Source: an uncultured Erysipelotrichaceae bacterium (GTDB taxonomy: Bacteria; Bacillota_I; Bacilli_A; Erysipelotrichales; Erysipelotrichaceae). From it: a DNA stretch of 11,923 nt. A program made the translations under genes and the position numbers. The stretch spans positions 1 to 11,923 of the forward strand of contig ONOV01000011.1 of the NCBI GenBank assembly GCA_900319505.1. The letters are read 5' to 3'. The notes beneath the pieces are model-generated. The model made no database searches. It saw nothing but the letters and a program-made list of their open reading frames with translations, and was not told the DNA's origin. The stretch's first letter is position 1, and each line of letters opens with the position of its first letter. Of this stretch, positions 2,878 to 11,592 are shown in pieces.

Positions 2878-2951
2878 CTGTATCAACACTGCTTCAGATG
2901 ACCGGGCAAAGCGGGAGCAGTGAGAAATAGATGTGCCGGAAGGCATTGAAT

Positions 2952-2957
2952 AAGGAG
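2952..2957 (+). promoter_or_regulatory. Ribosome binding site that decides the adhesin start
   Basis: AAGGAG is followed by three candidate ATGs at 2961, 2967 and 2973, at 3, 9 and 15 bases. Nine bases (2967) is the normal distance. The earlier in-frame ATG at 2931 has no site at a usable distance. Confidence 0.6.
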
Positions 2958-2966
2958 ATTATGAAA

Positions 2967-5900
2967 ATGAGAATGTTCAGAAAGGTATTGGCAGCCGTGC
3001 TGGCCGTCTTTATGATCGCAGCACATTTCAGCCTGCCCCAGGCAAGGGCGGAAAGCCCTTATTCCGTCCGTTCAGATGCGGAACTTTTAACTTTTGTACT
3101 GGTAGAAAATACAGAGGATGGTCCAATCGAAAGGGAAGAATCTTTTCATACGATTTCAATCAGGAATAATCATGACGGCAGCACTAAGATCGCCTACTGT
3201 ATTGAAGCTGACCGCGCAGCACCTGTCAGCTGGTCTGATTACAGTGATACAGAAGTCACAGTTGATCAGACAGCCGTCAAAGATGCCTACTATGGATATG
3301 GCTATCCGGGACATGAGGATGAGATGTGGATTGCAGCGACACAGATGGCAATCTGGCTCGATACCGGACAGGTACAGCAGATCAAAAGCATTCACTATGG
3401 CGGCGCACATCCGCGAAATGCACATACGCTGGAAGAGTATATGGCGTGTGTTGATGAAATTCGTGAGCTGGTAAAGGCAGAGGCGGAAATGAGCCGCAGG
3501 GATGTGAAAGAAATGTATTTTGTTGCGGCACCTGCCAGTACACACAACGCCAAATACCAGGCTGTCATGGCCGCCGGACTCTGGGAACAGACAGGTGAAC
3601 TGCAGCTGAAAGTAGAGAAGAAATCATCCATGTCTGCAGTAACCGATCAGAATACGGCCTATTCCCTGCAGGGAGCTTCTTTCAGTTTCTATCGCGATGC
3701 CGCGTGCAGGGATCTTTTCTACGCCATGGATGAGAATGATGAGACAACCGATGAACAGGGTGTATTTACAAAGTCTTTCGGGACACATGACTATCCGGAT
3801 CTCAACAGCATCAAAGAAAAGGGACTGTGGGCTGTTGAAACAAAAGCGCCGAAGGGATTTGAACTGGATTCGACGCCGCAGAAAGCTGATATTATCCAGA
3901 ATGGAAAGGCTTTTACAATCTATCATAAGAAAATCGACCGTCCGGAATATGCCCCGGTAAAGCTCAGAATCATCAAGAAAAATGCTCTTGTGGCGGAAAA
4001 TCCTGCTCCGATGAGCGGAGCGCAGTTTACTATCTGTTATTACAAGAACAGAAATCTGGAAGGAAAGCCCGCCAGGAAATGGGTGATTCAGACCCTTGAA
4101 ACATCAGAAGGGCAGTATGCGGCACAGCTGGGAAAGAAATGGCTTGTAAAAGGAGATGATCTGATCTGTGATGCGGATGGTACTGCTTTGATTCCAGCAG
4201 GTGCGATTACCATTGAAGAGACAAAGGCACCTGAAGGATACACGGTGGATGGACAGTATACAATTGAGGAAAGCGGCAGGCAGATCACAGTGCCGGATCA
4301 GAATGGGGTTGCCGTACTGTATGCCCTAATGAATGAAAATAAGGGCACGGTTGAACTCATGTGTGACAATCAGCCGGGCGGTGAGATTCAGAAAGAAGAA
4401 ATGCCGGATCTTTATCAGCTGAGTGTACAGAAGCTGGATGGAACAACGGGAAAAAATGAAGGACAGGGCGGTGCTCTGGATTTCACGACCGGCTTTATCC
4501 TGATAAATGATTCGCCTTATGCCAGATCTGTTGCCGGAACGGTGGTGCCAGCCGGCGGTTCTTATGCATTCACAACGGACAGCGAGGGAATGGCACGCGT
4601 GATGAATGTGGAACAGGGAAGTTATATCCTGAAAGAAACCAGTGCGCCTTATGGCTATATACTGCCGGCGGACGGTCAGCCGGTACGGATTCAGCTGGAT
4701 GGTGATCATCCTGAAGACCATCAGGTAATTGTAAATGTCAGCGATTATCCCAGACTCTATCGGCTGCAGGTATCCAAACGTGACAGTGAGACAGGCGAAA
4801 CAGCTCAGGGTGATGCGGATCTTTCCGGTACTTTCAGTGTGACAAACCTGAATGAGCATGCAGTAAGTGTAAACGGAAAGACATATCAGAATGGTGAAGT
4901 GATCATGACTTTTCATACCGATGCGGCCGGCAATTATACAAGCGACTGCATTTTTCCTTATGGCAGATATCTGATCAGAGAAGAAAGACCGCCCAGGGGA
5001 TACAGTGCCCGCGGCTTTGGATCAGATCATGCGGAAATGGACACTCTGCAGGAAGAAGTGTGCATGGATGGAGATCAGGAAATATTCACCGTTCAGCTGA
5101 CCAATGATGTAATAAAAGGAAAATTTGACCTGATCAAATACAGCTCAGAAGGCGGATCACGCTTTGTGGATCCGGAGGAAGGTGTTGAATTTACGGCAGT
5201 TCTTTCTTCAAAAATCGGGGAAGGAAAGCTGTTTGGAACATTTGATGATGCTCTGCAGGCAATCCGCAGGGCAGGCAGCGGACAAGATGTCATAGACGCA
5301 GAAGGCAGACCGCTGCTTCTCTCATCGGAATATGCTGTTTTGAAAACAGACTCTCAGGGACATGCAGAATCAGGCTTGCTTGCATATGGCACATATGAAA
5401 TCCGCCAGACATCTCATAAAGAAGGCATGCATGATGTGATCGGCAGCGCATACTTTACAGTCAGTGAAGAAAATCAGCCTGTAAAACATTATGCGGCCGT
5501 TAACGAGAAACAGGACTATTACCTGAGAATCGTCAAAAAGGATAAAGAGACAGGTGAAACCATCACGCAGCACTCTGCTTCCTTTAAGATTTACCGGATT
5601 GAGGGAGAAAAGCGAATACCGGTCATACAGAAGGTGGGGCTCATCAGCTTTGATACCTTTACCACAAACAGTGAAGGAAAGGCTGTCGGCATTAAAGGTA
5701 TTTTTACACATGAATACAGCAGTCGCGGAGACGAGAAAGGAACAGTAACGACGCCGCTCAAGCTTACAGCGGGGGAATATGAAATTGAGGAAGTCAGATC
5801 GCCATATGGCTATGTCAAACTGGATCAGCCGTATCGGTTTACGGCCGGGGAATCCAATATTGCGGAGACAGATGAAGATCATGACAGTCTTGTCGTGGTG

Positions 5901-8702
5901 AATGCCTATGATGAAAAGGTGAGTTCCGGACTGGAAATTGTAAAGAAAATTAAAGAATACAGTGCCGACCGTTCCTTTGTAAACCGGACTGATCTTTCCG
6001 GTTTCGGGTTTGAATTGTTTGCGGCAGAGGATATTGAAGATTCCACCAGCGGGGAAAAAATAGCAGAAAAAGGAAAACATGCCAGTGTGCTGACAGATAC
6101 AGGCTTCATTGAAACAGGAATTCTGTATACGGACAGCAGCGGACACATTACGCTGGATGCCCTTCCATTTGGCCATTACATTCTCAAGGAAACTGTTCAG
6201 CCGGAAGGTATCGTACCCAACACGAAGGAATATGCAGTTGATCTGACACCGCAGAAAGATGAGAGCCGGAAGGAAATCCGTCATACCATCACAATTAAAA
6301 ACGATACGACAAAACTGTCTGTTTCAAAAAAGGACGCGGCAGCAGAGGAACTGCCGGGTGCCCATATGAGTCTGAAGAATGAAAACGGGGAAGTAGTAGA
6401 TGAATGGGTATCTTCACAGAAGCCTCATGTGATGGAAGGCTTAAGTGCTGGAAAAACATATACGCTGTGTGAGGATCTGGCACCGTCAGGTTATACGAAG
6501 GTAAATGACATTCCGATCGTAATCAATATGGATGGTTCTGTACAGAAAGTGAATGTAGTGGATAAAGCCATGGCAGTCATGAAAGTGGACAACTGCAATA
6601 CGGCTGTGCCGGGTGCGCGGCTGGCTGTTTTTACGGCAGATGAAAACGGCAGTCCCGTGGGAGAAGCGCTGGACAGATGGGTTACGGATGACAAGGCTCA
6701 TATGGTCAGCGGCATTGAACCTGGAAAGAAATATGTGCTGGTGGAAGAACAGGCGCCGGCAGGCTACGTGAAGATGAAAAACAGAACCTTTACCTTGAAG
6801 GATGATGCAAAAGATCAGACCATGAAAGTCAAAAACACGCAGGTTGTGATTTCCAAAGAAGATGTCGGCGGGACTGAATTGGAAGGTGCAGTTCTGACAG
6901 TTGTGGAAAAGGATACGGAAAATATCATAGATCAATGGGTATCAGGCTGCGAAAAACATCTGATCAGCGGGCTTGAAGAAGGAAAAACATATACCCTGAA
7001 AGAAGACACGGCACCTCTAGGCTATGTGAAGAACAGTACGGTGGATTTCAAAGTTGGCAGCAACGATATGGAGGTCGTTCTCATTGACACGATTGAACGT
7101 GTAGCGAAAGTGGATAACAGAGGCAATACCATTAAAGGTGTGCAGCTGCAGGCGGTGGATGAAGCCGGCAATGTGATCGATACCTGGAGGACGGGTTCAC
7201 ACATTCTGGATTTCAACACAGAACAGAAGCAGTCCCTGCAGAAAGGTGAAATGATCGCCTTTGTGAAGGAAGACGGTACATCCGTGCGCGTTCAGCCGAC
7301 TGTAAAGACAGGTAAAAAGAGCATAAAAGCAGAGAAGAAATCCGGTGTGCAGAAACTTGCAAAGGAGTATTGTGAGCTGAAAAAGAAAAGATCGATCACA
7401 GAAGTGGATCAGTCTTCACTGCCACAGAACAGTGAATATGCCTATACGGCAGTGATCCAGGAGACGGATGGTACATTTGCCTATATAGATGTGGATCTGA
7501 ATGGTGATGAAACAGAACATCGTATCCGTCATCTTCAGGCAGGACAGAAGTACATCGTACAGGAAACAGAGGGCCTGAATGGCTATTACTATGCAGAAGA
7601 TGCTGAAGTAAAGCCGAATGACAGCAGCGATCATCGTACTATGATGGTTGATCATACTATTCATTATCAGATTGCCAAGGTGGATGATGTAACAGGAGCC
7701 TATGTAGAGGGTGTCAGGCTAGAGCTGACCGATATTACTGATGCGGAAAATCACATTCCGGTTGAACTGCCAAACGGCGGTATCACCACAGATAAACCGT
7801 TTGATCTGGATCAACAGCTGATCGCAGGCCATATATATGAGCTGGTGGAAAGTGAATATGTAGCCGGATATTACCAGGCTGTCAGTCTGCAGTTTACCGT
7901 TCCGCTCAAAGGCACTTCAGAACTGACAACTATTACGATGCGTGATGTGCCGACTGCTGTATCTGTCAGCAAGATTGACAGCAGCGGCAAGCCGGTGGCT
8001 GGTGCACTTCTGCAATTGCGGGATAGAGAAGGAAACATTCAGTATGAATTTGTTTCTTCTGATGCTCCTGAGGGAGTTGATATCAGTGCTTATGTCAAAG
8101 GCGGTGAGTCGTATATCCTGCATGAGTCAGAAGCACCTTACGGTTTTGATGTGACAGCGGACATTGCCTTTACGGTTACCGGAAATCCGGAAACACATCA
8201 GATTATCGTGATGGAAGATGCGAGAAATACCTGTTATATCGCTGTGGAAAAACAGGATGCGGAACATCCGGAAAAGAAACTGGCTGAAGCTGAATTTGCC
8301 TTATATGACGGTGCGGATCAGATTGTCAAAGATGTAAATGGTGAAGAATGCATCGGTATAACGGATGGAAACGGTGAACTGCTATGGCAGGTTACATTTG
8401 ACGGCAGTATGGACGGCTGGTATGTGAAGGAGACAAAGGCCCCGGAAGGCTATCAGCTCAACAGTGAAAAGTTTGCGGTCAAAGTCAGTGAAGATTATGA
8501 CTTTGCCCGGGAAAACCCGATCCGGCTGGTTGTCAGGGATATGATTGACGAAAAACCGAAGCTGCCGAATACCAGCACTGAAGAAACGCCTGGTGTGAAG
8601 ACCGGGGTGATAGATGACACTTCAAAATGGTTTGCGATCTTGATTACAGGTGTATGTCTTTTCCTGATTTTCCTGACGCGCAGAGACAGATCCTGCCACT
8701 AG
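2967..8702 (+). CDS. Giant LPxTG-like surface adhesin: thioester domain plus about 14 Cna-B modules
   Basis: 1911 residues from ATG 2967 (ATG 2961 is also possible). Seen in order: signal peptide 1-28 ending ARA; thioester domain about 30-210 with YCIE (Cys78) and TQMAIW (Gln126), matching the Cys and Gln motifs whose side chains form the internal thioester; then beta-sandwich Cna-B/SpaA modules starting near 212, 331, 483, 598, 717, 851, 986, 1117, 1202, 1293, 1378, 1566, 1664 and 1755. Most modules have the Lys in a VxKxD-like strand, the Glu in an ExxAPxGY-like motif and the closing Asn or Asp needed for an isopeptide bond. LPNTS (1866-1870), VKTG (1877-1880), a membrane segment 1888-1904 and an RRDR tail form the sorting signal. 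Thioester domains covalently grip host amines, and Cna-B stalks are stiff and protease-resistant. A host-surface adhesin is therefore the likely role. No sortase gene is nearby. Confidence 0.88.
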   Translation: MRMFRKVLAAVLAVFMIAAHFSLPQARAESPYSVRSDAELLTFVLVENTEDGPIEREESFHTISIRNNHDGSTKIAYCIEADRAAPVSWSDYSDTEVTVDQTAVKDAYYGYGYPGHEDEMWIAATQMAIWLDTGQVQQIKSIHYGGAHPRNAHTLEEYMACVDEIRELVKAEAEMSRRDVKEMYFVAAPASTHNAKYQAVMAAGLWEQTGELQLKVEKKSSMSAVTDQNTAYSLQGASFSFYRDAACRDLFYAMDENDETTDEQGVFTKSFGTHDYPDLNSIKEKGLWAVETKAPKGFELDSTPQKADIIQNGKAFTIYHKKIDRPEYAPVKLRIIKKNALVAENPAPMSGAQFTICYYKNRNLEGKPARKWVIQTLETSEGQYAAQLGKKWLVKGDDLICDADGTALIPAGAITIEETKAPEGYTVDGQYTIEESGRQITVPDQNGVAVLYALMNENKGTVELMCDNQPGGEIQKEEMPDLYQLSVQKLDGTTGKNEGQGGALDFTTGFILINDSPYARSVAGTVVPAGGSYAFTTDSEGMARVMNVEQGSYILKETSAPYGYILPADGQPVRIQLDGDHPEDHQVIVNVSDYPRLYRLQVSKRDSETGETAQGDADLSGTFSVTNLNEHAVSVNGKTYQNGEVIMTFHTDAAGNYTSDCIFPYGRYLIREERPPRGYSARGFGSDHAEMDTLQEEVCMDGDQEIFTVQLTNDVIKGKFDLIKYSSEGGSRFVDPEEGVEFTAVLSSKIGEGKLFGTFDDALQAIRRAGSGQDVIDAEGRPLLLSSEYAVLKTDSQGHAESGLLAYGTYEIRQTSHKEGMHDVIGSAYFTVSEENQPVKHYAAVNEKQDYYLRIVKKDKETGETITQHSASFKIYRIEGEKRIPVIQKVGLISFDTFTTNSEGKAVGIKGIFTHEYSSRGDEKGTVTTPLKLTAGEYEIEEVRSPYGYVKLDQPYRFTAGESNIAETDEDHDSLVVVNAYDEKVSSGLEIVKKIKEYSADRSFVNRTDLSGFGFELFAAEDIEDSTSGEKIAEKGKHASVLTDTGFIETGILYTDSSGHITLDALPFGHYILKETVQPEGIVPNTKEYAVDLTPQKDESRKEIRHTITIKNDTTKLSVSKKDAAAEELPGAHMSLKNENGEVVDEWVSSQKPHVMEGLSAGKTYTLCEDLAPSGYTKVNDIPIVINMDGSVQKVNVVDKAMAVMKVDNCNTAVPGARLAVFTADENGSPVGEALDRWVTDDKAHMVSGIEPGKKYVLVEEQAPAGYVKMKNRTFTLKDDAKDQTMKVKNTQVVISKEDVGGTELEGAVLTVVEKDTENIIDQWVSGCEKHLISGLEEGKTYTLKEDTAPLGYVKNSTVDFKVGSNDMEVVLIDTIERVAKVDNRGNTIKGVQLQAVDEAGNVIDTWRTGSHILDFNTEQKQSLQKGEMIAFVKEDGTSVRVQPTVKTGKKSIKAEKKSGVQKLAKEYCELKKKRSITEVDQSSLPQNSEYAYTAVIQETDGTFAYIDVDLNGDETEHRIRHLQAGQKYIVQETEGLNGYYYAEDAEVKPNDSSDHRTMMVDHTIHYQIAKVDDVTGAYVEGVRLELTDITDAENHIPVELPNGGITTDKPFDLDQQLIAGHIYELVESEYVAGYYQAVSLQFTVPLKGTSELTTITMRDVPTAVSVSKIDSSGKPVAGALLQLRDREGNIQYEFVSSDAPEGVDISAYVKGGESYILHESEAPYGFDVTADIAFTVTGNPETHQIIVMEDARNTCYIAVEKQDAEHPEKKLAEAEFALYDGADQIVKDVNGEECIGITDGNGELLWQVTFDGSMDGWYVKETKAPEGYQLNSEKFAVKVSEDYDFARENPIRLVVRDMIDEKPKLPNTSTEETPGVKTGVIDDTSKWFAILITGVCLFLIFLTRRDRSCH

Positions 8703-9173: not shown

Positions 9174-9201
9174 CAGAAAGGTTTCTGAAAAGGAGAATAA
9201 A

Positions 9202-10500
9202 ATGAAATCATTTGATTATCAGGTTGTTAACTCTCTTGGTATTCATGCCCGTCCGGCAGCCATGCTGGCACAGGCATGCACCAACTACAAGTCCAGCGTC
9301 ATGATTGAGTGCAATGGCGAGACTGCTTCGGGCAATAATGTTCTGCAGATCCTCGGCCTGCATGCTGCAAAGGGCTCTACACTTCGTTTTAATGTGGATG
9401 GTTCCGATGAAGACGCATGCGTTGCTGAAATTCAGGAAGTTCTGAAGGAAATTGCACCGAAAGAAAAGCCTGTATCCGTACTCAAAGTTGCTTTCTTTGG
9501 CACAAAAGATTATGACCGTATGTTCTTCAGTGAGCTTTCCAAAGACAAGGGCGAAGGTACATACAATGTTGATATCACCTACTTTGTTTCCCGTCTGACA
9601 ATTGAATCTGTTCATCTGGCACAGGGCTTCGATGCCGTATGCATTTTCGTTAATGATGAAGCACCGCGTGCTGTTGTTGAAGCACTGGCAAAGGGCGGCG
9701 TTCGTCTGATTCTGTTAAGATGCGCCGGTTTCAACAATGTTGATCTGGATGCCTGCAAGGAAAACGGCATTACTGTACTGCGCGTTCCGGCATATTCTCC
9801 GTATGCAGTTGCAGAACATGCCATGGCGATCATTCAGACAGCCAATAGACGTGTCATGAAGGCATATAACAAAGTCAAGGACAACAACTTCTCACTCAAT
9901 GGCCTGTTAGGTGTTGACCTGCATAACAAGGTTGCCGGTATTATGGGCACTGGCAGAATCGGTCAGATCATGGCCCGTATCTGCAAGGGCTATGGCATGA
10001 CTGTTATCGGCTGGGATGCTTATCCGAATCAGAAGCTGGTGGATGAAGGACTGCTGACATATGTCTCCAAGGAAGAACTGCTCAGAAAGGCAGATCTGAT
10101 CTCCCTCCATGCCCCGCTGATCATGGGTGAAGGCGGAACCTATCATATGATTGATGAACATGCTATCTCTCTGATGAAGGATGGCGTAATGCTTGTCAAC
10201 GCTGCCAGAGGACCGCTGATTGATACAGATGCTCTGATCAAGGGATTAAGAGCCAACAAGTTCCATGCGGTTGCACTGGATGTTTATGAAGGAGAAGATG
10301 ACAATGTCTACACCGATCATTCCGATGATATGATGCAGAATTCCATTGTTGCCAGACTCGTAACATTCCCGAACCTGGTTCTGACAAGCCATCAGGCATT
10401 CTTCACTCGTGAAGCTCTGCAGGCAATTGCTGCTGTCACGATGGAAAATGCCAGAAACTTCAATGAAGGCCTGCCGTTTGGCAACGCTGAAGTGAAGTAA
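9202..10500 (+). CDS. HPr phosphocarrier domain fused to LdhA-type D-lactate dehydrogenase
   Basis: This 432-residue protein has two complete domains in one unbroken frame. Residues 1-87 are an HPr fold: NSLGIHARPA (10-19) with phosphorylatable His15 and Arg17, and NNVLQILGLHAAKG (45-58), where position 46 is Asn instead of the regulatory Ser. After a short linker (PKEKPVS, 86-92), residues 94-432 match LdhA-type NAD-dependent D-lactate dehydrogenase: FFGTKDYD start, CIFVNDEAPR, LRCAGFNNVDLDA, the nucleotide loop GTGRIG (249-254), Arg336, Glu365 and His397 at the family's 29- and 32-residue spacings, and SHQAFFT. It should reduce pyruvate to D-lactate and regenerate NAD+. The HPr part could take phosphate from Enzyme I and report sugar uptake. 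AGGAG at 9191-9195 supports ATG 9202; an earlier in-frame start at 9139 lacks a binding site. It is convergent with the FNR-type gene with no gap. Confidence 0.93.
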   Translation: MKSFDYQVVNSLGIHARPAAMLAQACTNYKSSVMIECNGETASGNNVLQILGLHAAKGSTLRFNVDGSDEDACVAEIQEVLKEIAPKEKPVSVLKVAFFGTKDYDRMFFSELSKDKGEGTYNVDITYFVSRLTIESVHLAQGFDAVCIFVNDEAPRAVVEALAKGGVRLILLRCAGFNNVDLDACKENGITVLRVPAYSPYAVAEHAMAIIQTANRRVMKAYNKVKDNNFSLNGLLGVDLHNKVAGIMGTGRIGQIMARICKGYGMTVIGWDAYPNQKLVDEGLLTYVSKEELLRKADLISLHAPLIMGEGGTYHMIDEHAISLMKDGVMLVNAARGPLIDTDALIKGLRANKFHAVALDVYEGEDDNVYTDHSDDMMQNSIVARLVTFPNLVLTSHQAFFTREALQAIAAVTMENARNFNEGLPFGNAEVK

Positions 10501-10512
10501 TCATTCTTTACT
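10496..10512. other. Zero-gap convergent junction with small inverted repeat
   Basis: The TAA of the HPr-LDH gene (10498-10500) directly touches the TGA of the regulator (minus, 10503-10501). AGTAA (10496-10500) and TTACT (10508-10512) form a five-base inverted repeat across the junction. There is no GC-rich terminator, so transcripts from the two genes should overlap. Confidence 0.6.
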
Positions 10513-11211
10513 GTCACGGCTGATCTCCGCAAGACCGACAGAATCGATGACTCTGATTCTGCCCTGTCCTGTGCGGGCGATCAGCTTTTTTCGTGCCAGA
10601 ACGGCAATAGAGCGGCTGATTGTTTCCGGTCGCAGAGAAATAGCATTAGCCATATCTTCCAGTTTCATATGAATCTCCTGACCATGGGCACGGGAATCAT
10701 GGAAAATCAGAAAACGGGCTACTCGGGCAGTCGGATCTTTTATGGAAAGAACAACAATCTTCTGATTGGCGTCTTCCAGTTCGGATGACAGCATTTCAAT
10801 CAGATACATGGCAGAATCAGGATTCTTGTGCAGGACAGTCATGAAGTCGCTGCGGCGGATAAAACAGAGACTGACATTGCTGACAGAAGTGACATCATAG
10901 GTGTAGCGCGGATCTTTGAGGAACAGGCCATGCCAGATTGCCTGTCCTGCATGCAGAAAGTCAAAAACATGTTCACGGCCTTCTTCATCACAGATCGAAG
11001 TTTTGACTTCTCCTTTTGTAATGATCAGAATGCTGTCAATCGGATCACCGTAATGGACGACAATTTCATTGCGTTCCCGCTGTGTATGTATAGCTAAAGT
11101 ACACAGCTTTTTACGCGCTTCGTCTGGCAGGGAACGGAACAGCCGGATGTTTTCTGTGCAGTATGTATCTTTTTTCCGGTATGGACAGAAAGGCAGGCAA
11201 TATTCTTTCAT
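10501..11211 (-). CDS. FNR-type Crp/Fnr family regulator with candidate Fe-S cysteines
   Basis: The 236-residue protein has a cyclic-nucleotide-like beta-roll (about 22-125; ITKGEV at 64-69), a dimer helix (about 129-155) and a C-terminal winged helix. The recognition helix reads RPETISR (194-200); Glu196, Ser199 and Arg200 match the FNR set that reads TTGAT-type half sites, not the Crp set. Cysteines 5, 9 and 18 precede the roll, and Cys116 lines up with the fourth cluster ligand (Cys122) of E. coli FNR. An oxygen- or redox-sensing [4Fe-4S] protein is therefore plausible, though the N-terminal spacing (C-x3-C-x8-C) differs from FNR. The ATG at 11211 has only a weak GAGA-type binding site and the leader may be about a dozen bases. 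It converges on the HPr-LDH gene and diverges from the rhodanese. Confidence 0.9.
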   Translation of the reverse strand: MKEYCLPFCPYRKKDTYCTENIRLFRSLPDEARKKLCTLAIHTQRERNEIVVHYGDPIDSILIITKGEVKTSICDEEGREHVFDFLHAGQAIWHGLFLKDPRYTYDVTSVSNVSLCFIRRSDFMTVLHKNPDSAMYLIEMLSSELEDANQKIVVLSIKDPTARVARFLIFHDSRAHGQEIHMKLEDMANAISLRPETISRSIAVLARKKLIARTGQGRIRVIDSVGLAEISRDSKE

Positions 11212-11226: not shown

Positions 11227-11254
11227 TTAACTTTAGCATGAATCGTGCTAAGAT
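11227..11254. promoter_or_regulatory. Face-to-face divergent extended -10 promoters forming a palindrome
   Basis: TTAGCA (11233-11238), seven bases, TGCTAA (11246-11251) is a perfect inverted repeat. Its right arm is the plus-strand extended -10 TGCTAAGAT (11246-11254), with TTAACT at 11227-11232 as -35 (16 bases) for the rhodanese. Its left arm, read on the minus strand, is TGCTAAAGT, an extended -10 for the FNR-type regulator. The two promoters overlap and probably compete, or share one operator. Confidence 0.5.
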
Positions 11255-11280
11255 TTCTGAAGATAGATGAGGTGAGCGTC

Positions 11281-11592
11281 ATGTTTCAGAAAAGACAGAA
11301 AGCGGACATCAATGAAGGCTATGCATCTTATCAGCAGCACCCTGGTGCATATCTGATCGATGTACGTGAAAGTGAGGAGTTTGCGGAGGGACATCTGCCG
11401 GGAGCAGTGAATGTACCGCTCAGTGAACTGGAAAAAATCAGAAATGTTGTGCTGGATGAACATTCTCTTGTGTATCTGTACTGCCGTTCCGGTGTCAGAG
11501 CAGAAAAGGCCAGACGGGAGATGAATGCGGCCGGGTATGATAATGTTTATGCCATCGGCGGTGTTCTGGATTACAGAGGACAGCTTGTCTGA
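11281..11592 (+). CDS. Single-domain rhodanese-like protein
   Basis: The 103-residue protein is one rhodanese domain: YLIDVRESEEFAEGHLPGA (24-42), the typical entry signature, and the active-site loop CRSGVR (68-73) with catalytic Cys68. EKARREMNAAGYDNVYAIGGV completes the fold. Such proteins carry sulfane sulfur as a Cys persulfide and move it between thiols. The six-residue loop fits sulfur rather than arsenate or phosphate substrates. GAGGTG at 11269-11274, six bases before ATG 11281, sets the start; a GTG at 11245 lies inside the promoter palindrome and is unlikely. No signal peptide is seen, so it is cytoplasmic. Divergence from a possible Fe-S/redox regulator is consistent with a sulfur or redox role, but this is inference. 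Confidence 0.9.
   Translation: MFQKRQKADINEGYASYQQHPGAYLIDVRESEEFAEGHLPGAVNVPLSELEKIRNVVLDEHSLVYLYCRSGVRAEKARREMNAAGYDNVYAIGGVLDYRGQLV

What the first reader, a model, noticed from the sequence alone, without database searches (positions are those of the whole stretch)
9202..10500. HPr phosphocarrier fused in frame to a D-lactate dehydrogenase
One gene encodes a whole HPr domain (1-87) and a whole LdhA-type dehydrogenase (94-432), joined by a short linker, with one good ribosome binding site and no stop or frame change between them. Both active sites are complete (His15/Arg17; GTGRIG, Arg336, Glu365, His397). HPr is normally a free sugar-transport phosphocarrier. I know of no described enzyme with this architecture, though I cannot search. 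Physically coupling PTS phosphorylation state to the last step of lactate fermentation would be a new kind of flux control: PEP/Enzyme I would phosphorylate the HPr part and tune pyruvate reduction.
Basis: partly seen in the sequence, partly recalled or inferred. Interest (0 to 1): 0.78.

Follow-up and report, generated by a model that had tools for sequence, protein, structure and literature searches.

The report
Lactate enzyme carrying a sugar-transport switch
Many gut and rumen bacteria make a lactate-forming enzyme permanently joined to a complete sugar-transport phosphate carrier, which probably lets the state of sugar uptake tune how pyruvate becomes D-lactate, an idea that still awaits a test.

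Summary
One 432-codon gene (9202-10500, +) encodes a full HPr domain (1-83), a 10-residue linker and a full LdhA-type D-lactate dehydrogenase (94-432). It is not an assembly artefact: the top cluster stands for 103 contigs, 70 of 294 sampled genomes of the order have full-length copies, and so do isolates of Lactimicrobium, Kandleria and Eggerthia. Trees fit one origin for each domain.

(1) His15 and Arg17 are kept in 300 of 300 readable fusions, but position 46, serine in the genome's free HPr, is Asn or Asp in 301 of 301. The fused HPr therefore keeps the PEP/Enzyme I site and has lost the kinase site, the mirror image of Crh (recalled). (2) All 33 fusion genomes examined also hold a free HPr, so the fused copy looks specialised.

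Best reading: a D-LDH with a built-in PTS phosphorylation sensor, insulated from HPr kinase. Regulation itself is inferred. My paper searches listed no description, yet NCBI already names some copies [quoted passage not shown]. New variant of a known kind: PTS control of an enzyme, done in cis.

The parts
9190..9195 (+). Shine-Dalgarno AAGGAG before the ATG at 9202
   Evidence: sequence; 65 of 67 upstream stretches, own one counted once, have an SD-like motif within 20 nt of the same start
9202..10500 (+). fused gene, HPr + LdhA-type D-lactate dehydrogenase, 432 aa plus stop
9202..9450 (+). HPr domain, residues 1-83
   Evidence: Pfam PF00381 residues 3-82; predicted strands and helices 2-83
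9244..9246 (+). His15, presumed Enzyme I phosphorylation site
   Evidence: 300 of 300 readable fusions; one of 301 (P0091, 412 aa) has a gap here
9337..9339 (+). Asn46 in place of the HPr-kinase serine
   Evidence: N 261, D 40, S/T 0 of 301 fusions; free HPr of the same genome has Ser here
9451..9480 (+). linker, residues 84-93, poorly conserved
   Evidence: mean majority-residue share 0.36 against 0.65 (HPr) and 0.84 (LDH) in 59 fusions
9481..10497 (+). LdhA-type D-lactate dehydrogenase, residues 94-432
   Evidence: best PDB sequence match 5z21, E 5.9e-94 over 94-428; Foldseek TM (target) 0.93 to 5z20_A and 5z21_A
9946..9963 (+). GTGRIG dinucleotide-binding motif, residues 249-254
   Evidence: G249, G251, G254 in 301 of 301
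10207..10209 (+). Arg336, catalytic arginine (role recalled)
   Evidence: 300 of 301
10294..10296 (+). Glu365, catalytic glutamate (role recalled)
   Evidence: 301 of 301
10390..10392 (+). His397, catalytic histidine (role recalled)
   Evidence: 301 of 301
9547..9561 (+). fusion-specific insertion, around residues 116-120
   Evidence: G117 in 62 of 62 and G119 in 60 of 62 fusions, gap in 11 of 11 unfused LdhA-type enzymes
10123..10131 (+). fusion-specific 3-residue insertion, residues 308-310
   Evidence: present in the three fusions printed, gap in all 11 unfused LdhA-type enzymes printed

Best explanation
This is a fermentative, NADH-dependent D-lactate dehydrogenase with a built-in PTS sensor. 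Enzyme I~P, charged from PEP, phosphorylates His15 of the HPr domain, so the enzyme carries in its own chain a readout of the PEP:pyruvate ratio and of PTS sugar flow. During fast PTS uptake the HPr part is mostly unphosphorylated and the dehydrogenase is active. When sugar runs out and PEP rises, His15~P lowers its activity. Because Ser46 has been replaced by Asn/Asp, HPr kinase (ATP/FBP signal, recalled) cannot act there, so only the PEP/Enzyme I arm is read. Shown here: fusion, trees that fit a single origin, conservation of both active sites, Asn/Asp in place of Ser46, presence of the free PTS partners in the same genome. Inferred: D-lactate activity, phosphorylation at His15, coupling between the domains and its direction.
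For: Catalytic set of D-LDH kept (R336 300/301, E365 301/301, H397 301/301) and His15/Arg17 in 300 of 300 readable copies, with V47 300/301 and L48 301/301, in a domain that otherwise averages 0.65 conservation in 59 copies. Position 46 N/D in 301 of 301, while nearby position 43 varies S/N/D/A and needs at least 13 changes on the tree against 4 at position 46. Free HPr in 33 of 33 fusion genomes checked. Enzyme I N-domain in the own genome and HPr kinase in 4 of 4 genomes. HPr parts on one side of a branch (support 92/97), LDH parts likewise (SH-aLRT 99). AlphaFold pTM 0.87 and pLDDT 92.7 with the deeper alignment. Precedent in trans: dephospho-HPr lowers the Km of V. vulnificus PykA for PEP (PMC5987630, passages).
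Against: No experiment. No published assay of this protein was listed by my searches. The model's coordinates and PAE are not readable here, so where His15 sits relative to the LDH cleft is unknown. Inter-domain covariation is inconclusive (effective number of sequences 22-89); its best inter-domain pairs involve Tyr6 and Ser59, not His15 or its neighbours. No cre, Rex or Fnr site recurs upstream (at most 4 of 68). The V. vulnificus precedent is species-specific: not seen in E. coli. With only about 4 changes at position 46, the absence of Ser may partly be shared ancestry.
Confidence: 0.5

Rival explanations
1. Docking and channelling: the HPr domain is mainly a tether that brings the dehydrogenase to Enzyme I, which releases pyruvate when it takes phosphate from PEP, so pyruvate made by the PTS is reduced on the spot.
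For: His15, Ala16, Arg17, Val47 and Leu48, the centre and hydrophobic patch that I recall as Enzyme I-facing, are invariant in 59 of 59 and nearly so in 301. The chemistry fits: Enzyme I's product is the dehydrogenase's substrate.
Against: Pyruvate diffuses fast. A 2020 review states there is no evidence for larger complexes between EI, HPr and EII (PMC8100219, passage seen). No direct test here.
Confidence: 0.15
2. Extra phosphocarrier: an abundant fermentation enzyme doubles as a PTS phosphocarrier that cannot be switched off by HPr kinase, keeping sugar uptake running at high flux. The dehydrogenase itself is not regulated.
For: His15 conserved and Ser46 absent. In low-methane sheep, the Sharpea azabuensis D-LDH gene and its PTS genes are both highly expressed (PMC5069950, passages seen); whether that D-LDH is the fused form was not tested.
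Against: Free HPr is present in 33 of 33 fusion genomes checked, so supply seems unnecessary. The LDH part also carries fusion-specific insertions, which a passive carrier would not need.
Confidence: 0.2
3. Structural passenger: the HPr domain was joined by accident and is kept only for folding or assembly of the enzyme.
For: The fusion appears to be one event kept in related genomes, so inertia could keep it. About half-identical unfused enzymes exist in the same order and class.
Against: A passenger would hardly keep the phosphorylatable histidine in 300 of 300 copies while 0.65 is the average conservation of the domain. Other HPr paralogues in these genomes have lost it (for example Tyr in L162, L163, L165).
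Confidence: 0.12
4. Assembly or annotation artefact: two genes joined by error.
For: The window comes from a draft assembly of 239 contigs.
Against: 103 contigs in the top cluster; isolates including Eggerthia catenaformis, Kandleria vitulina and Lactimicrobium massiliense; 70 of 294 genomes of the order full length.
Confidence: 0.01

Closest known systems
LdhA-type fermentative D-lactate dehydrogenase (E. coli, Fusobacterium nucleatum, Pseudomonas aeruginosa; PDB 5z1z, 5z21, 5z20)
   Same: Same fold (TM 0.93), 45% identity to 5z21 and 42% to 5z1z in the Foldseek alignment, same catalytic residues
   Different: N-terminal HPr domain; against 11 unfused relatives: insertions around 116-120 and at 308-310, G364 in place of E and W271 in place of Y (62 of 62 fusions against 0 of 11)
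HPr (ptsH) of Firmicutes
   Same: Whole PF00381 domain with His15 and Arg17
   Different: No Ser46; separate from the housekeeping HPr in the tree; part of an enzyme
Crh of Bacillus (recalled)
   Same: A specialised HPr paralogue that receives only one of the two phosphorylation signals
   Different: Mirror image: Crh lacks His15 and keeps Ser46 (recalled); the fused HPr keeps His15 and lacks Ser46
HPr-containing multiphosphoryl transfer proteins: FruB/FPr, IIA-Man (dihydroxyacetone kinase) types (PMC2405797, passages seen)
   Same: HPr as one domain of a larger protein
   Different: Their partners are PTS proteins (EIIA, EI); here the partner is a metabolic enzyme. The word dehydrogenase does not occur in that paper's main text
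Dephospho-HPr stimulation of pyruvate kinase A in Vibrio vulnificus (PMC5987630, passages seen)
   Same: HPr phosphorylation state controlling an enzyme of the pyruvate node
   Different: There two separate proteins; here one chain and the next enzyme along
Malic enzyme fused to a phosphate acetyltransferase domain (PMC8100219, passage seen)
   Same: A pyruvate-node enzyme carrying a second metabolic domain not needed for catalysis
   Different: That domain shows no PTA activity of its own; here the fused domain keeps its own active site intact

Membership tests
HPr family (PF00381 / TIGR01003) | Profile match over the whole domain | tested here: met
   PF00381 76.6 bits (cut-off 23); TIGR01003 71.2 bits (cut-off 47.9)
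HPr family (PF00381 / TIGR01003) | His15 with Arg17 for phosphate from Enzyme I | tested here: met
   300 of 300 readable fusions
HPr family (PF00381 / TIGR01003) | Accepts and passes on phosphate | not testable with these tools
   needs biochemistry
Gram-positive regulatory HPr (HPr kinase substrate) | Ser46 | tested here: not met
   N 261, D 40, S/T 0 of 301
Crh | His15 replaced, Ser46 kept (recalled definition) | tested here: not met
   opposite pattern
LdhA-type D-lactate dehydrogenase | Sequence and fold match over the whole enzyme | tested here: met
   5z21 E 5.9e-94 over 94-428; TM 0.93, rmsd 2.1
LdhA-type D-lactate dehydrogenase | Catalytic Arg, Glu, His and GxGxxG | tested here: met
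LdhA-type D-lactate dehydrogenase | Curated NCBIfam D-lactate dehydrogenase cut-off | tested here: not met
   best are vanH_gen 206 bits (cut-off 540) and PRK12480 185 bits (cut-off 579); 25 of 30 matching models were shown. The unfused relative L093 also stays below these cut-offs, so the models are narrow
LdhA-type D-lactate dehydrogenase | Pyruvate to D-lactate activity | not testable with these tools
   needs assay
Multiphosphoryl transfer protein (FPr/DhaM type) | HPr fused with EIIA and/or EI | tested here: not met
   only HPr and 2-hydroxyacid dehydrogenase domains found above cut-off

The most novel reading that the evidence does not exclude
The fused HPr is a one-input phospho-switch. 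The kinase site has been removed by evolution, so lactate formation in a large group of gut and rumen bacteria is set directly, within one molecule, by the PEP/Enzyme I state, a covalent link between sugar uptake and fermentation end product.
Probability: 0.42. Interest if true: 0.82.

Novelty: new variant of a known kind. Interest (0 to 1): 0.62.

Why it matters
To my knowledge HPr-enzyme regulation has been studied as contacts between separate proteins. Here the contact is fixed in the gene and repeated across many gut bacteria, so the question whether PTS state controls fermentation can be tested on one purified protein. The carriers include Kandleria vitulina, a rumen lactate producer linked, with Sharpea, to low methane yield (PMC5069950, PMC6781651, passages seen). 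Databases name the protein variously 'D-lactate dehydrogenase', 'HPr family phosphocarrier protein', '2-hydroxyacid dehydrogenase' or 'fused HPr ...', so surveys of lactate genes or of HPr genes are likely to misread it.

Tried and rejected
Conserved neighbourhood: none of four window neighbours (NTP transferase, Maf, Crp/Fnr, rhodanese; the large surface protein was not tried) was found at E <= 1e-8 in the 70 other loci examined; the one locus with hits, L048, is the window's own genome. 33 of the 71 loci hold only about 1.5 kb each side, and the 71 hold 63 distinct fused proteins. An operon argument was therefore dropped.

Upstream regulator sites: cre, Rex, Fnr and CRP consensus patterns (recalled) were found in at most 4 of 68 upstream stretches (loose Rex 4 against 0.85 in shuffles; CRP 1; two cre patterns 1 each), at no consistent place.

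Inter-domain covariation: inconclusive, effective number 22 to 89.

The first AlphaFold job, on 59 fusions only, gave pLDDT 84.3 and pTM 0.70 with a distorted LDH (rmsd about 5-8 to D-LDHs). The second, with 82 sequences, unfused enzymes included, gave 92.7 and 0.87. Neither returns PAE or coordinates, so domain packing is unread.

Sharpea: I hoped to show that its strongly expressed D-LDH is this fusion; no name shown or 49 is Sharpea, so it is left open. Names are shown for few hits. The same paper found only L-LDH genes, not D-LDH genes, differentially abundant at the metagenome level.

L-LDH as the alternative route: TIGR01771 above cut-off in 4 of 12 fusion genomes, two further weaker matches (one a contig-end fragment in the own genome), none in G145, whose matches have the coordinates of the Eggerthia catenaformis genome. 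That Eggerthia makes D-lactate is recalled, not read (two terms searched in PMC5511923 gave nothing), so the genotype-phenotype argument is only a lead.

Rows dropped: one search kept 78 loci (69 distinct proteins) and lost five full-length fusions, L030, L031, L032, L057, L059, because the changed BLAST setting trimmed their starts; one search shows that all five have His15 and Asn46. Alignment A1 and the trees use 59 of the 69 distinct proteins (near-copies left out). In one search one fused and two free HPr domains identical to others were merged (58 fused, 48 free); free HPr genes without a locus were read only in part (20 fetched). L098 was left out of the unfused set for a stop in its frame. 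In one search the comparison is 11 of 20 unfused rows, the LdhA-type ones. The 301 proteins are distinct strings from the best 120 hits of each of two searches plus the loci, so close relatives weigh heavily.

Full report
What is there. The gene at 9202-10500 (+) is open for 432 codons with AAGGAG six bases before its ATG. Pfam finds a whole HPr domain (3-82) and both halves of a D-2-hydroxyacid dehydrogenase above cut-off. The dehydrogenase half matches LdhA-type D-lactate dehydrogenases best (5z21, E 5.9e-94), and the predicted model overlays 5z20 and 5z21 at TM 0.93, rmsd 2.1. The model from 82 aligned sequences has mean pLDDT 92.7 and pTM 0.87. My inference is that pTM that high would be hard to reach with the HPr part wholly unplaced, but PAE was not available.

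It is not an artefact. The top protein cluster stands for 103 contigs and 13 member sequences, and the 120 hits listed of 8000 scored carry both domain types. A second search from the Kandleria copy listed another 120, again with both. 45 loci came from the species genome collection: 41 are fusions matched from residue 1 to 423 or further, two (L043, L045) are fusions cut by a contig end, and two (L046, L047) match one domain only. Named isolates include Lactimicrobium massiliense, Eggerthia catenaformis and Kandleria vitulina.

Spread. In the own order, 70 of 294 genomes have a full-length fusion (matched at least over residues 7-423), 4 have partial or split pieces, 13 have only an unfused relative, and 207 have no match at E <= 1e-90 (my count on the rows). 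Even in the own genus several genomes lack it. In a phylum-wide sample of 392 genomes, 20 matched at that level: 11 fusions, all in the own order, and 9 unfused enzymes in other families of the class. By these samples the fusion sits in two families of one order; a more distant fusion would be missed at that cut-off. Against confinement: the titles of 13 of the 45 loci say Lachnospiraceae, one fusion's says Oscillospiraceae (L028), and a named hit says Bilifractor (P0011). Two of those labelled Lachnospiraceae (L038, L039) group with own-family copies L062 and L063 in both trees, so some titles may be misassigned; I did not test this. The own genome is 'same genus' as G213, whose matches have the same coordinates as those in the genome behind the Lactimicrobium locus.

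One origin fits. In a tree of 58 fused and 48 free HPr domains the fused ones are one side of a branch (92/97; 88% of 200 bootstrap trees), apart from the housekeeping HPr (only 86 columns, and the tool warns that long branches meet, so the sister is unsure). In a quick tree of 59 fused and 13 unfused dehydrogenases the fused ones are again one side of a branch (SH-aLRT 99, no bootstrap).

The HPr part is kept as a phosphate acceptor, but not as a kinase substrate. Over 301 distinct fused proteins, His15, Ala16 and Arg17 are present in the 300 with letters there (P0091 has a gap), Leu48 in 301 and Val47 in 300. Position 46 is Asn in 261 and Asp in 40, never Ser or Thr. Free HPr of the same genome has Ser there (L001). 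Position 43, three residues away, is S 147, N 78, D 35, A 27 and others, so serine is not shunned generally. On the dehydrogenase tree position 46 needs at least 4 changes and position 43 at least 13, so shared ancestry may explain part of the pattern at 46. That Ser46 is the HPr kinase target and that Crh has the opposite pattern is recalled knowledge. HPr kinase itself is present in 4 of 4 genomes tested, so escaping it could matter.

Free partners. 33 of 33 fusion genomes scanned (of the 70) hold at least one further HPr; the 7 comparison genomes without a full-length fusion hold one or two. Among the 50 free HPr frames read are canonical ones (His15, Ser46), forms with Tyr at 15 and Ser at 46 (for example L162, L163, L165, L167, L169, L172), and forms with His15 and Lys at 46 (L161, L164, L166, L168, L174, L175). 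So this order has diversified HPr in several directions, and the fused form is one of them. An Enzyme I N-domain is present in the own genome.

The dehydrogenase part has adapted too. 26 positions are at least 95% conserved in 62 fusions but found in at most one of 11 unfused LdhA-type enzymes. They include an insertion around residues 117-119; a three-residue insertion at 308-310 is seen in the printed rows. They are candidates for contact with the HPr domain; that is inference. Covariation could not settle it.

How it probably works. Dephospho-HPr lowers the Km of V. vulnificus PykA for PEP when glucose is present, though not in E. coli (PMC5987630, passages). Putting HPr on the next enzyme would extend the same logic: fast PTS flow, unphosphorylated HPr, active lactate formation; no sugar, PEP high, His15~P, lower activity. 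I give 0.5 to regulation of this general kind. Alternatives are an uninhibitable phosphocarrier (0.2), docking to Enzyme I for local pyruvate use (0.15) and a structural passenger (0.12). Phosphorylation, D-lactate activity and coupling have not been shown by anyone I could find.

Literature. Nine searches of the open library were made. Five were aimed at the fusion and four at the organisms or at HPr precedents. No title or abstract start listed describes this fusion; two searches listed 20 of 22 and 20 of 27 papers, and apart from the six papers I opened I saw listings only. The library lacks most subscription papers. A 2008 survey of HPr across 19 archaea and 153 bacteria reports HPr fusions with PTS proteins in the passages I saw (PMC2405797). 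Kamke and others report Sharpea azabuensis D-LDH 12-fold higher in low-methane sheep, with PTS genes among the most expressed (PMC5069950, passages); whether it is the fused form is open.

Verdict. The architecture is already in databases under several names; the mechanism is, as far as these searches reach, undescribed.

Noticed in passing
window 2931-8702 (+): A 1923-residue surface protein with ten SpaA/prealbumin-like stretches, a thioester domain near the N-terminus (PF08341, 26.1 bits) and an LPNTS sortase-like end (motif recalled): a probable thioester adhesin.
   Followed up: partly
window 10501-11211 (-) and 11245-11592 (+): A Crp/Fnr-type regulator gene ends at the base after the fused gene's stop, facing it, followed by a divergent rhodanese gene; the pair is not found in the other 70 fusion loci examined.
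   Followed up: partly
L162, L163, L165, L167, L169, L171, L172, L173: Free HPr paralogues with Tyr at position 15 and Ser at 46, a Crh-like pattern, in genomes of the second family f2.
   Followed up: no
L161, L164, L166, L168, L174, L175: A second class of free HPr with His15 but Lys-Lys at 45-46, so also without the HPr kinase serine.
   Followed up: no
L170 (G135): A free HPr with His15 and Asn at the position of Ser46, beside the fused clade in the tree but weakly supported (91/68) and on a long branch.
   Followed up: partly
P0228, P0133, P0003, P0011, P0108: The same protein family is named 'HPr family phosphocarrier protein', 'D-lactate dehydrogenase', 'fused HPr ...' or '2-hydroxyacid dehydrogenase' depending on source.
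   Followed up: no
L007-L013, L015, L018-L020, L038, L039: Thirteen fusion loci carry record titles saying Lachnospiraceae although the fusion samples by taxonomy place it in another order; titles or horizontal transfer, not resolved.
   Followed up: no
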